Below are positions 31,298 through 33,728 of a stretch of DNA of 64,000 nucleotides, in pieces. Source of the stretch: Ignavibacteria bacterium (lineage in GTDB: Bacteria; Bacteroidota; Ignavibacteria; Ignavibacteriales; SURF-24); NCBI GenBank assembly GCA_025612245.1, contig JAAXKQ010000016.1:1-64000 (forward strand), read 5' to 3'. The notes under the pieces are model-generated. The model had not been told where the DNA came from. It worked only from the letters and a program-made list of their open reading frames with translations, and searched no databases. The position numbers and the translations under genes are program-made. Within the stretch, counting starts at the first letter, position 1. Each line of letters begins with the position of its first letter.

Positions 31298-31816
31298 TTA
31301 GCCTTTGTTTTCGGGTGCCATTTTACCGTGCCCCTGCATCATGCCTTTTCCCTGCATCATGCCCCTGCCGCGGCGCATGCCTTTCATGCCTTCTCCTCTT
31401 CTCTGTCCATTGAGCATAGGAGCAGTCTTACGGAAAGTCTCCTTCTGCTGGTCGTTAAGAAGGCTATAGATCTGAAACCAGTGCTTAATTGATGAGGCCT
31501 TCATATCGGCCTGCATGTCGCTAACCTTCTTTGTAAGGTCCAGAACCTTATTCTCATTTACGTCCTTATTCAGGAAGAGATTTTTTATCTCAAGCCTTGT
31601 CTTTGCAACGTCGGACCTATAATCAATCATCTGTTTCTGGTGCTCAAGTCTAAGCTTTGCTATCTGGTCTTTCTGATCCTGTGTAAGGTTAAGCTCCTGA
31701 AGCATCTTCTGGCGGCCCTGAAATTTGCCCTGACCCTTTGCCTGTGCAAACATGCTTCCCAGGGGCAAAATAGCAACTAAGGCTACTGCAATAATATTTA
31801 TTATCTGCCTTTTCAT
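31298..31816 (-). CDS. Spy/CpxP-like periplasmic protein with Met/Gly-rich tail
   Basis: Small secreted protein (172 residues) with a signal peptide ending in GSMFAQA. It has the helical LTxxQ repeats of the Spy/CpxP/ZraP family: ELNLTQDQKDQIAKL near residue 41 and YSLLNDQQKETF near 120. Family members act as periplasmic chaperones or metal sensors. The C-terminal tail is rich in Met, Gly, His and basic residues (GRGMMQGKGMMQGHGK), suggesting metal binding. It is transcribed away from an ECF sigma gene whose operon encodes a second Spy-like protein, so co-regulation is likely. Start is an ATG after AAAGGAGAA. Confidence 0.85.
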   Translation of the reverse strand: MKRQIINIIAVALVAILPLGSMFAQAKGQGKFQGRQKMLQELNLTQDQKDQIAKLRLEHQKQMIDYRSDVAKTRLEIKNLFLNKDVNENKVLDLTKKVSDMQADMKASSIKHWFQIYSLLNDQQKETFRKTAPMLNGQRRGEGMKGMRRGRGMMQGKGMMQGHGKMAPENKG

Positions 31817-31865
31817 TTTTAATTCTCCTTTGTTATTTTAAGGTATCGTTTTAATGTTTTTTTTT

Positions 31866-31927
31866 ACCAGGCTGGATCCAGATAAATATCATTCTTGAAT
31901 ATTTACACTATTTGGACACAGCCTGGT
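31866..31927. promoter_or_regulatory. Inverted repeat between the divergent Spy-like and ECF sigma genes
   Basis: ACCAGGCTG (31866-31874) and its exact reverse complement CAGCCTGGT (31919-31927) are separated by 44 bases. The left arm overlaps a second palindrome, CTGGATCCAG (31872-31881). The pair lies in the only promoter-bearing gap of this stress locus, so it could be a looped operator or a structured leader. Confidence 0.4.
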
Positions 31928-32054
31928 CTTTTCTGGTTTAAAGGCAAGAGAAAAAATCATTACGGAAAAAATTCATGGGGGAGTCTCAGGCTGTCTATTT
32001 GTTTTAAACCTCCGGACGGTTATGTGTGTCTAATTTTTGAACTTGTAGAGTTAT

Positions 32055-32609
32055 ATGGCAGAAGATAAGGATTTTCAATACGTCAGGCGCTTCATTGATG
32101 GAGACGAAATGGCCTTTAATCTGTTGGTGCAGAAGTACCAGCAGAAAATTTACTGGCATGCCAGACGTATGTTGGGAAACCATATGGATGCCGACGAAGT
32201 TACGCAGGAAGTTCTGATTGTCCTTTATAACAAGCTGAAAAGCTTTAACTTTAAGTCTTCGCTCTTTACCTGGATCTACAGGATTACTGCAACCAGGAGT
32301 ATCAACCAGCTTAATAAAAGAAAACTGAAGAGATTTCTTTTTATTGAGGACTCGGATTACGATACGCTTAAGGACAGCGGGGACATTATTGGTGAGATTG
32401 AGAATAAAGAGAAAGTAAATAAACTGGACAATATATTAAAGCAGCTTCCCGTTAAGCAAAGGGAAGTGTTCATACTAAGGAATTTTGATGAATTGTCATA
32501 TGAAGAGATAGCTGAGATAACGGGGAAAAGTGTTGGCGGCCTTAAGGCCAATTACTTTCACGCTTTGAAGAAAGTAACGGAGATGATGGGGAAAAATGAA
32601 AACGAATGA
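32055..32609 (+). CDS. ECF-type RNA polymerase sigma factor
   Basis: Sigma-70 family factor of the ECF group (184 residues). Region 2 carries LVQKYQQKIYWHARRM, then DADEVTQEVLIVLYNKL and LFTWIYRITATRSINQL for core and -10 contact. Region 4 has LPVKQREVFILRNFDELSYEEIAEI followed by a helix-turn-helix (GKSVGGLKANYFHALKK) for -35 binding. The 3' end overlaps the next gene, a membrane protein that looks like its anti-sigma factor, by 14 bases. Such pairs control envelope or metal stress responses. Confidence 0.93.
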   Translation: MAEDKDFQYVRRFIDGDEMAFNLLVQKYQQKIYWHARRMLGNHMDADEVTQEVLIVLYNKLKSFNFKSSLFTWIYRITATRSINQLNKRKLKRFLFIEDSDYDTLKDSGDIIGEIENKEKVNKLDNILKQLPVKQREVFILRNFDELSYEEIAEITGKSVGGLKANYFHALKKVTEMMGKNENE

Positions 32610-33237
32610 TGAAATATTAAAGTATCTTGCAGGCTTGCTCTCTGAAGAGGAGAAAAGGGAGTTCGAGCTCAGGATGGAAAATTCACCTTCACTAAGAAAA
32701 GAGCTGGAGAGGAAGGCATCTTACTTAAAGGAGCTCAAGGCTTTGGGCAGCGTTGAAGCCGATACGCATTACTTCGAACAGCTCCTGCCCCAGCTGAGGC
32801 AGAAAAAGCTGCAGCAGAAGACCTCCTTGGGAAAAAAGAGAACCTTCAGGCTTTATCCCAGGCTTGCTTATATTGTGCCAATTCTGGCCGTAATAGCTTT
32901 CTTATTGTTTAAGCCTTCGCCTTATAACCCGACTTTCAAGAAGAACACGGCTCCTGCTCCTCCGGCAGAGCTTACAAGGGAAGTAAGCCGGATGAACGAA
33001 CAGACCAAGAGGGAACTGGCAGGCAGCCTGATGGAAAACGAAACCGGTACTACAATTCAGCCCGAGTCACTTCCTGATAATGCGGCTGAGGCCGTGGAAA
33101 ATACGCTGGGCGAGGAATTATATGCCGGAAGCGATTCAAAAGCACAGTATATAGACACCGACGAACTGATGAACTCAATTTCAAATGATGAAGCCGAGGA
33201 TATTTACCAGGCTATGATAAATAAAAAGATTCTTTAG
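32596..33237 (+). CDS. Probable membrane-bound anti-sigma factor
   Basis: Protein of 213 residues with a cytoplasmic N terminus (NDEILKYLAGLLSEEEKREFEL), one transmembrane helix at about residues 88-106 (YPRLAYIVPILAVIAFLLF) and an acidic periplasmic part. The N-terminal helical bundle beginning with a short DEILKYLAG-type helix is typical of Bacteroidota-type anti-sigma proteins. No HxxxCxxC zinc motif is present. Overlap with the sigma gene and the following Spy-like gene support the role; no family signature proves it. Confidence 0.7.
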   Translation: MKTNDEILKYLAGLLSEEEKREFELRMENSPSLRKELERKASYLKELKALGSVEADTHYFEQLLPQLRQKKLQQKTSLGKKRTFRLYPRLAYIVPILAVIAFLLFKPSPYNPTFKKNTAPAPPAELTREVSRMNEQTKRELAGSLMENETGTTIQPESLPDNAAEAVENTLGEELYAGSDSKAQYIDTDELMNSISNDEAEDIYQAMINKKIL

Positions 33238-33245
33238 GAGAAGAA

Positions 33246-33728
33246 ATGAAAGTTGTACTTATGGTTCTCATCCTTTTTGCCGCGTCTTTTGTTTCTGTCG
33301 TTGCACAGGGAAGAGGACCCATGTCGCAAAAGGCCCACGAAAAGATCAGCGAACTGGAAAAGCTAAAGCTCATGGAAACCCTGAACCTGGACGAATCCAA
33401 AATGGTCAAGTTCTTTGCACGCAGGAAGGAATTCCAGGATAAGATTCAGGACCTCAATAAGCAGAGAAACGACGTGCTCGACCAGGTGCAGAATGCCCTG
33501 AACAATGAGGGTAATTCCTCTAAAGACGAGCAGTATTACAAAAAATATGTCGAGAGCATTAAAACTATAGACCTTAATCTGGTCCGGGCAAGGAACGAAT
33601 ATTTCAATTCATTGAGGGATATACTCACACAAAAGCAGCTCGCAAAGCTGATGGTTTTCGAAAGGAACTTCAAAAAAGAACTCAGGGACATAATCTTCAA
33701 AGAAAGAAGAAAAAATATGCAGGATTGA
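33246..33728 (+). CDS. Spy/CpxP-like periplasmic protein in the ECF sigma operon
   Basis: Secreted helical protein (160 residues) with a signal peptide (VVLMVLILFAASFVSVVAQ). The body is mostly charged amphipathic helix, with LMETLNLDESKMVKFF and a second LTxxQ-like motif, ILTQKQLAKLMVFERNF. This is the layout of Spy/CpxP and CnrX-type sensors. It starts eight bases after the putative anti-sigma gene, so it probably senses a periplasmic signal and relieves sigma-factor inhibition; this is inference. Family membership is moderately secure. Confidence 0.7.
   Translation: MKVVLMVLILFAASFVSVVAQGRGPMSQKAHEKISELEKLKLMETLNLDESKMVKFFARRKEFQDKIQDLNKQRNDVLDQVQNALNNEGNSSKDEQYYKKYVESIKTIDLNLVRARNEYFNSLRDILTQKQLAKLMVFERNFKKELRDIIFKERRKNMQD

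What the first reader, a model, noticed from the sequence alone, without database searches (positions are those of the whole stretch)
31298..33728. ECF sigma locus with two Spy-like periplasmic proteins, analogous to CnrYXH
An ECF sigma gene overlaps a one-helix membrane protein that looks like an anti-sigma factor, followed by a secreted Spy/CpxP-like protein; a second Spy-like protein with a Met/His-rich tail is divergent. In Cupriavidus the CpxP-fold sensor CnrX works with anti-sigma CnrY and ECF CnrH in metal sensing. Here neither periplasmic protein has obvious sequence identity to CnrX, so this may be an independent solution that senses metals or misfolded proteins.
Basis: partly seen in the sequence, partly recalled or inferred. 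Interest (0 to 1): 0.55.

Follow-up and report, generated by a model that had tools for sequence, protein, structure and literature searches.

The report
Envelope-stress sigma locus with two Spy-like proteins
A four-gene bacterial alarm module, in which a stress-specific transcription factor, its membrane-bound inhibitor and two related periplasmic helper proteins are kept together, appears to switch on pumps and helper proteins that protect the cell envelope, and it may sense damage with a protein of the chaperone fold.

Summary
The window carries spyA <- | -> ECF sigma, one-helix anti-sigma, spyB. The last three lie together in 56 of 56 loci of the order and in 76 of 80 loci fetched by sigma alone, the 4 misses running off contigs; divergent spyA was seen only within the order (0 of 40 wider loci). 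The divergent promoter holds two back-to-back TTAAAC-N15-19-TGTC copies in 49 of 49 regions (shuffles 0.15). Elsewhere in 57 genomes the strict motif lies just upstream of genes at 48 of 69 sites (control 2 of 30), all 48 with hydrophobic N-termini: HlyD/MacA adaptors, MacB, TolC, TonB-type receptors, more Spy-family proteins. SpyA is a true Spy/CpxP relative; SpyB keeps the fold, lacks the LTXXQ signature and has no conserved metal ligands. Best reading: an autoregulated envelope-stress module, SpyB probably the anti-sigma's periplasmic partner, SpyA an output chaperone. CnrX-type metal sensing is not supported. SpyB/anti-sigma contact was not shown; covariation was inconclusive. A similar sigma/anti-sigma/spy operon was published in Phocaeicola vulgatus in 2026.

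The parts
31298..31816 (-). spyA: secreted Spy/CpxP-family protein, 172 aa, Met/Gly/Arg-rich tail; predicted output chaperone
   Evidence: PF13801 8.4e-9 and PF07813 7.3e-6, both above cut-off; order profile finds E. coli Spy 3oeo at 5.7e-11 and CpxP 3qzc at 9.1e-7; LTXXQ in 50 of 52 orthologs
31912..31941 (-). predicted sigma-dependent promoter of spyA: TTAAACC-N16-TGTCCAA, 96 nt from the ATG
   Evidence: strict motif; relaxed form on this side in 49 of 49 regions
32004..32033 (+). predicted sigma-dependent promoter of the sigma operon: TTAAACC-N16-TGTCTAA, 22 nt from the ATG
   Evidence: relaxed form on this side in 49 of 49 regions
32055..32609 (+). ECF sigma factor, 184 aa
   Evidence: TIGR02937 5.5e-30; order profile nearest to sigma-H 6in7 (1.5e-28), SigW, RpoE; CnrH 2.2e-13
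32596..33237 (+). anti-sigma factor, 213 aa: helical N-terminal domain 1-80, one TM helix about 86-108, variable linker, conserved C-terminal helix about 195-207
   Evidence: weak NCBIfam anti-sigma matches below cut-off
33246..33728 (+). spyB: secreted Spy-fold protein, 160 aa; predicted periplasmic partner of the anti-sigma
   Evidence: AF2 mean pLDDT 90.2; CnrX chains among best Foldseek matches, weak E; homologous to SpyA by profiles, prob 98.6, E 9.4e-16; trio conserved

Best explanation
An autoregulated envelope-stress module. Without stress the ECF sigma is held at the inner membrane by the one-helix anti-sigma, whose variable periplasmic linker ends in a conserved short helix. SpyB, a Spy-fold protein made in the same operon, probably docks on that tail and keeps the complex closed. 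Misfolded envelope proteins or other ligands of SpyB would draw it away (as proposed for RseB and CpxP), exposing the anti-sigma to proteolysis. The freed sigma reads TTAAACC-N16-TGTCNAA promoters: its own operon (making more inhibitor, so the response shuts off), the divergent chaperone SpyA, and efflux pumps (MacAB-TolC, HAE1-type RND), TonB-type receptors and further Spy-like proteins. Shown: gene order and its conservation, family and predicted fold of the parts, the promoter motif and its placement. Inferred: that this sigma reads the motif, the SpyB docking, the signal, and the proteolysis.
For: Sigma, anti-sigma and SpyB together in 56/56 order loci; sigma and SpyB in trio spacing in 76/80 sigma-fetched loci with the 4 misses at contig ends, and in 20/20 class and 18/20 phylum loci, these 40 fetched by SpyB itself. 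Twin relaxed motif 49/49, strict on both sides 30/49. Strict motif elsewhere upstream of genes 48/69 vs 2/30 control; spacer 16:17 = 60:9 vs 13:17. 48/48 targets with hydrophobic N-termini vs 13/32. Pfam tallies of targets; own-genome targets. LTXXQ matches 50/52 SpyA and 0/56 SpyB. C-terminal anti-sigma helix better conserved than its linker. Precedent: AabB, a periplasmic operon partner, lowers SigAb activity (PMC12153292, passages).
Against: No direct evidence of SpyB/anti-sigma contact: of the top 60 covarying pairs with SpyB, 22 fall in the periplasmic part (87 of 186 columns) and 35 in the cytoplasmic domain (78 of 186), so no enrichment, while the positive control sigma/cytoplasmic domain gave 50 of 60. 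Spy proteins can simply be outputs, as the P. vulgatus authors propose (PMC13114119). Another ECF sigma could share the motif. 21 of 69 outside sites are not upstream of a gene by my rule (14 inside ORFs). Relative G054 has no SpyB match yet one site upstream of a receptor gene (L098; the genome is 93% complete).
Confidence: 0.5

Rival explanations
1. SpyB is only an output chaperone. The anti-sigma senses stress by itself, through proteases or its own tail; spyB sits in the operon for balanced induction, as is assumed for spy behind cirYZ in Phocaeicola vulgatus.
For: SpyB and SpyA are homologous. P. vulgatus cirYZ-spy: deletion of the anti-sigma gene most strongly induces cirY, spy and two downstream genes, and the authors describe Spy as a protective chaperone (PMC13114119, passages). 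The covariation test gives no sign of SpyB/tail contact.
Against: SpyB lacks the LTXXQ signature that SpyA keeps (0 of 56 vs 50 of 52), while the trio stays contiguous in loci without SpyA; further Spy-family proteins among the motif's targets lie elsewhere. The anti-sigma keeps a conserved terminal helix after a variable linker.
Confidence: 0.33
2. CnrYXH-like metal sensor: SpyB binds Ni, Co, Cu or Zn and transmits it to the anti-sigma, inducing metal efflux.
For: CnrX chains are the recurrent bacterial periplasmic matches of the SpyB model (prob 0.91-0.99, TMt 0.60-0.67, E 0.13 or worse); the motif precedes a tripartite RND pump; SigAb of Acinetobacter responds to copper (PMC12153292, passages).
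Against: No conserved His/Cys/Met in SpyB, whereas CnrX signalling needs Met123 (PMC7689651, passages); the RND permease is nearest to multidrug models, not CusA/CzcA; the sigma is not closest to CnrH.
Confidence: 0.1
3. The twin motif is read by another ECF sigma, so the module is not autoregulated and the listed targets belong to a different regulon.
For: A second ECF sigma gene with a Spy-like ORF lies beside the module in L251; other ECF sigmas of these genomes were not surveyed; no expression data exist here; G054 has no SpyB match but has a site before a receptor gene.
Against: The relaxed motif sits on both sides of this locus in 49 of 49 regions and before the sigma gene in 11 of 20 class and 7 of 18 phylum loci. 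Of the three relatives without a SpyB match (G043, G047, G054), G047 has no strict site and both G043 sites lie inside ORFs; G054 is the exception named above.
Confidence: 0.07

Closest known systems
CirY-CirZ-Spy of Phocaeicola vulgatus (PMC13114119, 2026; passages read)
   Same: ECF sigma, anti-sigma and co-transcribed Spy-fold protein in that order; sigma gene and spy induced when the anti-sigma is deleted; P. vulgatus has two such loci
   Different: The passages mention no divergent second Spy gene and no efflux regulon; Spy is described as output, not partner. Homology of CirYZ to these proteins was not tested by sequence here
SigAb-AabA-AabB of Acinetobacter baumannii (PMC12153292, 2025; passages read)
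   Same: ECF sigma, one-helix anti-sigma and small helical periplasmic protein in one operon with overlapping genes; the third protein has anti-sigma activity
   Different: AabA is 107 aa and binds in a CnrY-like way in the authors' model; copper-responsive; three direct targets. Sequence relation not tested here
CnrYXH of Cupriavidus metallidurans (PMC7689651, PMC4803752; passages read)
   Same: ECF sigma, membrane anti-sigma, helical-bundle periplasmic sensor (CpxP-like fold recalled), and a tripartite RND pump as target
   Different: Gene order anti-sigma, sensor, sigma; metal ligands including Met123; sensor is a transmembrane protein; metal RND pump
RpoE8 operon of Azospirillum brasilense (PMC12826043; passages read)
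   Same: ECF sigma, hypothetical protein and a protein annotated as periplasmic heavy metal sensor in one operon
   Different: Only noted there as up-regulated by RpoE6; function not studied in the passages seen; no sequence comparison made here
RpoE-RseA-RseB of E. coli (PMC8103513; passages read)
   Same: RpoE/SigW-like sigma, membrane anti-sigma, periplasmic partner encoded in the operon, envelope-stress output
   Different: RseB is not of the Spy fold (recalled); no proteolysis shown here
Spy/CpxP/ZraP family
   Same: SpyA: sequence family; SpyB: predicted fold
   Different: In E. coli spy answers to the Cpx and Bae two-component systems (PMC13114119 discussion), not to an ECF sigma

Membership tests
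Spy/CpxP family (PF07813 LTXXQ / PF13801) - SpyA | family profile above cut-off | tested here: met
   PF07813 27.1 bits (cut-off 24.3), PF13801 36.1 bits (29.2); LTXXQ matches 50 of 52 orthologs at E<=0.01
Spy/CpxP family - SpyB | LTXXQ family profile | tested here: not met
   LTXXQ is not among the 17 families that match any of 56 members at E<=0.01; Metal_resist matches 6 of 56
Spy/CpxP/CnrX fold - SpyB | hairpin of long helices | tested here: met
   model helices 26-46, 50-86, 95-123, 129-159; CnrX and a VirG-like protein among Foldseek matches at E 0.13 and worse; ZraP 3lay Z 9.9 among generic helical bundles; profile homology to SpyA
CnrYXH metal sensor | metal ligands in the sensor, including a conserved Met | tested here: not met
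   no column after the start Met with H, C or M above 36% in 146 SpyB
CnrYXH metal sensor | short CnrY-type anti-sigma | tested here: inconclusive
   8 Foldseek matches, all RsiW, RslA or the SigK partner; CnrY not listed, which does not exclude it
CnrYXH metal sensor | heavy-metal RND pump as target | tested here: not met
   NF033617 multidrug 1103 bits (cut-off 1250), TIGR00914 CusA/CzcA 407 bits (cut-off 701); that the pump is a target is itself inferred from the motif
CnrYXH metal sensor | response to Ni/Co | not testable with these tools
   needs experiment
ECF anti-sigma factor | one transmembrane helix after an N-terminal cytoplasmic domain | tested here: met
   one hydrophobic segment in 142 of 146, none in 4
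ECF anti-sigma factor, class I | class I anti-sigma domain fold | tested here: inconclusive
   residues 1-80 mostly pLDDT above 90; all 8 Foldseek matches are anti-sigma factors, TMt 0.52-0.68, but E 1.1-8.3
Zinc-binding anti-sigma subclass | HxxxCxxC | tested here: not met
   absent from the window's protein (sequence); present in 16 of 146 anti-sigma ORFs
sigma/anti-sigma/spy operon as cirYZ-spy | same gene order and autoregulation | tested here: inconclusive
   order met; autoregulation only by promoter motif; no sequence comparison with CirYZ made
RpoE-RseA-RseB type control | periplasmic partner binds anti-sigma; proteolytic release | tested here: inconclusive
   covariation inconclusive; no complex prediction offered; proteolysis not testable here

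The most novel reading that the evidence does not exclude
Across the Bacteroidota-Ignavibacteria lineage a chaperone fold has been recruited as the dedicated periplasmic inhibitor of an ECF anti-sigma system, so that envelope damage is read by chaperone titration and answered mainly with multidrug efflux and further Spy-family proteins; in Ignavibacteriales the sensor (SpyB) and the effector (SpyA) are homologous proteins made from mirror-image promoters of the same sigma.
Probability: 0.35. Interest if true: 0.68.

Novelty: new variant of a known kind. Interest (0 to 1): 0.5.

Why it matters
How Ignavibacteria sense envelope damage seems little studied: the one search made for it gave 348 matches, and none of the 10 shown mentions Ignavibacteria. 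A near-universal module of the order with a sharp, testable promoter gives a concrete candidate regulon, links envelope stress to multidrug efflux, and offers a case where sensor and effector may be homologous proteins of one chaperone fold, so the idea of sensing by chaperone titration (RseB, CpxP) can be tested with two proteins that differ in role but share ancestry.

Tried and rejected
Metal sensing as in CnrX: considered first, set aside for lack of ligands, pump type and sigma type. Covariation of SpyB with the anti-sigma tail: 146 trios, inconclusive (where no anti-sigma profile hit existed the longest ORF after the sigma gene was taken). Sequence search of solved structures with the SpyB profile: best rows are protein A constructs and a VirG-like protein, no CnrX. 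VIA-align second look at SpyB: dominated by generic helical hairpins; CnrX not in its 50 rows, ZraP is; not used as evidence of absence. Anti-sigma profile against PDB sequences: one unrelated weak row. Plasmid collection with a distant sensor: no match. My first fetch of motif sites (and L093) covered 42 of the 69 outside sites and left out all 9 N17 sites and 18 N16 sites; I then fetched the other 27 so that the count holds misses; 2 of the 9 N17 sites are upstream of a gene and 7 lie inside ORFs. The control was read for 30 of its 50 sites. Three of 52 divergent regions were left out of the motif count because the ORF starts were called too far upstream. The four loci without a complete SpyA are not in that count. 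A tree of SpyA and SpyB was not built. Scripts that failed.

Paper searches for prior art. Also looked at without use: PMC9723704 (passages; no Spy-linked ECF named in them). The ECF reclassification paper was not held, so no ECF group number is assigned.
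Full report
What is there. The window holds spyA (31298-31816, minus), an ECF sigma gene (32055-32609), an anti-sigma gene overlapping it by 14 nt (32596-33237) and spyB (33246-33728), between prfC and a tRNA-Leu(gag) gene. The sigma is unambiguous. The anti-sigma has no Pfam match at E<=1 and only weak NCBIfam anti-sigma matches (13 and 10 of 56 orthologs match the two best models at E<=0.01), but its predicted fold matches only anti-sigma factors in the PDB (8 of 8 rows at E<=10: RsiW, RslA and the SigK partner, RskA by recall; E 1.1 to 8.3, so each alone is weak), and 142 of 146 orthologs have one membrane helix.

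The two periplasmic proteins differ. The SpyA order profile finds E. coli Spy (5.7e-11), CpxP (9.1e-7) and ZraP (5.1e-4) in the PDB, and LTXXQ matches 50 of 52 orthologs. The SpyB profile finds none of these, LTXXQ matches none of 56 orthologs and Metal_resist matches 6. Yet SpyB is homologous to SpyA (profile comparison probability 98.6, E 9.4e-16) and its model (mean pLDDT 90.2) finds CnrX chains at Foldseek ranks 6-8 and again below (probability 0.91-0.99, TMt 0.60-0.67, E 0.13 and worse), mixed with unrelated helical proteins, some ranked higher. SpyB thus keeps the fold but not the chaperone signature, while SpyA keeps both. No SpyB column after the start has more than 36% His, Cys or Met (146 sequences).

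Conservation. In 59 genomes (own plus 58 relatives) the SpyB search hits 56; G043, G047 and G054 have none. In all 56 loci sigma, anti-sigma and SpyB lie together; SpyA is adjacent and divergent in 52. Of the other four, L040 and L070 carry partial SpyA at contig ends, L053 ends at the sigma gene, and in G014 (L060) SpyA lies on another contig with its own motif copy at C90:297-326, about 40 nt before the SpyA match. A set of 80 loci fetched by the sigma alone from named genomes (titles include Ignavibacteriales, Melioribacteraceae, Ignavibacteriaceae, best 80 of 499 kept) shows the trio in 76; the four misses have under 800 nt of contig left. Some of these are the same genomes as in the first set; pooled, 169 of 176 loci gave trios, 146 of them non-redundant. 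In 40 further loci chosen because they encode SpyB, from the class and the phylum, sigma and SpyB stand in trio spacing in 20 of 20 and 18 of 20, with divergent SpyA in 0 of 40. SpyB-profile matches occur in 143 of 395 sampled phylum genomes at E<=0.001; weaker ones may be other Spy-like proteins.

Promoters. Between spyA and the sigma gene lie two back-to-back copies of TTAAACC-N16-TGTCNAA, each in the right orientation and position for its gene. Of 49 usable regions (of 52), all 49 have the relaxed form on both sides (0.15 expected over both strands from shuffles) and 30 have the strict form on both sides. The relaxed form also precedes the sigma gene in 11 of 20 class loci and 7 of 18 phylum loci with a sigma gene. 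The motif has the AAC/GTC elements usual for ECF promoters (recalled).

Candidate regulon. In 57 genomes the strict motif occurs 150 times against 50 for the reversed control. 81 sites are in the module (counted by hand), 69 elsewhere. All 69 were fetched: 48 lie within 250 nt upstream of a same-strand ORF of at least 90 aa and outside other ORFs (46 of 60 with N16, 2 of 9 with N17), 14 lie inside ORFs and 7 are neither; of the 50 control sites 30 were examined, 2 upstream and 26 inside (Fisher p 2.6e-9). All 48 downstream proteins have a hydrophobic N-terminal segment against 13 of 32 ORFs in control loci. Pfam tallies of the 48: CarboxypepD_reg 12 and TonB Plug 7, HlyD adaptors 7, LTXXQ 5, outer-membrane efflux 2, MacB core 2, and others. 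In the window's own genome a slightly looser pattern (TTAAAC-N16-18-TGTCNAA) gives 8 sites, 2 of them in the module. The strict form precedes a complete adaptor-permease-TolC RND operon, conserved in the sister genome G001; the looser form precedes MacA-MacB, an 812-aa TonB-type receptor, a lipoprotein-like gene and less clear genes (receptor domains). The permease is nearest to a multidrug RND model (1103 bits, cut-off 1250) and far from CusA/CzcA (407 bits, cut-off 701). The targets are predictions from a motif; no transcript was measured. G054, without a SpyB match but 93% complete, has one site before a receptor gene (L098) and one inside an ORF.

Mechanism. Autoregulation and a divergent chaperone output are the natural reading of the promoter anatomy. 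That SpyB is a regulatory partner is inferred from its strict operon bond, its lack of the chaperone signature, the CnrX-like fold, the conserved helix that ends the anti-sigma tail (positions 195, 199, 203-204, 207) and the precedents CnrX and AabB. Against it stands the covariation test: the positive control worked (50 of the top 60 sigma/anti-sigma pairs in the cytoplasmic domain, which holds 78 of 186 columns) but SpyB pairs showed no excess in the periplasmic part (22 of 60 against 87 of 186 columns). With 146 sequences and a poorly aligned tail this is inconclusive, not a refutation.

Known systems. The nearest published one found is cirYZ-spy of Phocaeicola vulgatus, an ECF sigma/anti-sigma pair with a co-transcribed Spy-fold protein, induced in colitis; deleting the anti-sigma most strongly induces the sigma gene, spy and two downstream genes (PMC13114119, passages). 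There Spy is seen as output. SigAb-AabA-AabB of Acinetobacter has the same layout and a third protein with measured anti-sigma activity (PMC12153292, passages); sequence relation was not tested. CnrYXH shares architecture and an RND target but not the metal site or pump class (PMC7689651, PMC4803752, passages). An Azospirillum operon of sigma, hypothetical protein and annotated periplasmic metal sensor is mentioned in PMC12826043 (passages). Hence: works like these, a new variant of a known kind, not shown to be a CnrYXH member.

Noticed in passing
L251 3657-6369 (minus): A second ECF sigma gene with a Spy-like ORF lies directly upstream of the module, a tandem of two ECF/Spy units.
   Followed up: no
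G014 contig C90:297-783: SpyA lies on another contig than its sigma operon but carries its own TTAAACC-N16-TGTCGAA copy just upstream, a natural test of co-regulation.
   Followed up: partly
L123, L124, L337: The motif precedes a 78-aa ORF followed by a second gene in G030 and G009 (PqqD-like then ATP-grasp-like, from the look of the sequence only); too short for my 90-aa rule, so counted as misses. L123 and L337 have the same site letters, near the two ends of one contig.
   Followed up: no
L127, L128, L329, L339: Four genomes carry the motif before a related lipoprotein-like gene that shares the stretch NFDSxxxxxIDY; the L127 protein matches LTXXQ above cut-off.
   Followed up: partly
   Followed up: partly
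L276-L281, L283: Distant loci mostly have shorter anti-sigma ORFs with a VPxxYF-like motif, repeated in several, ahead of the membrane helix.
   Followed up: no
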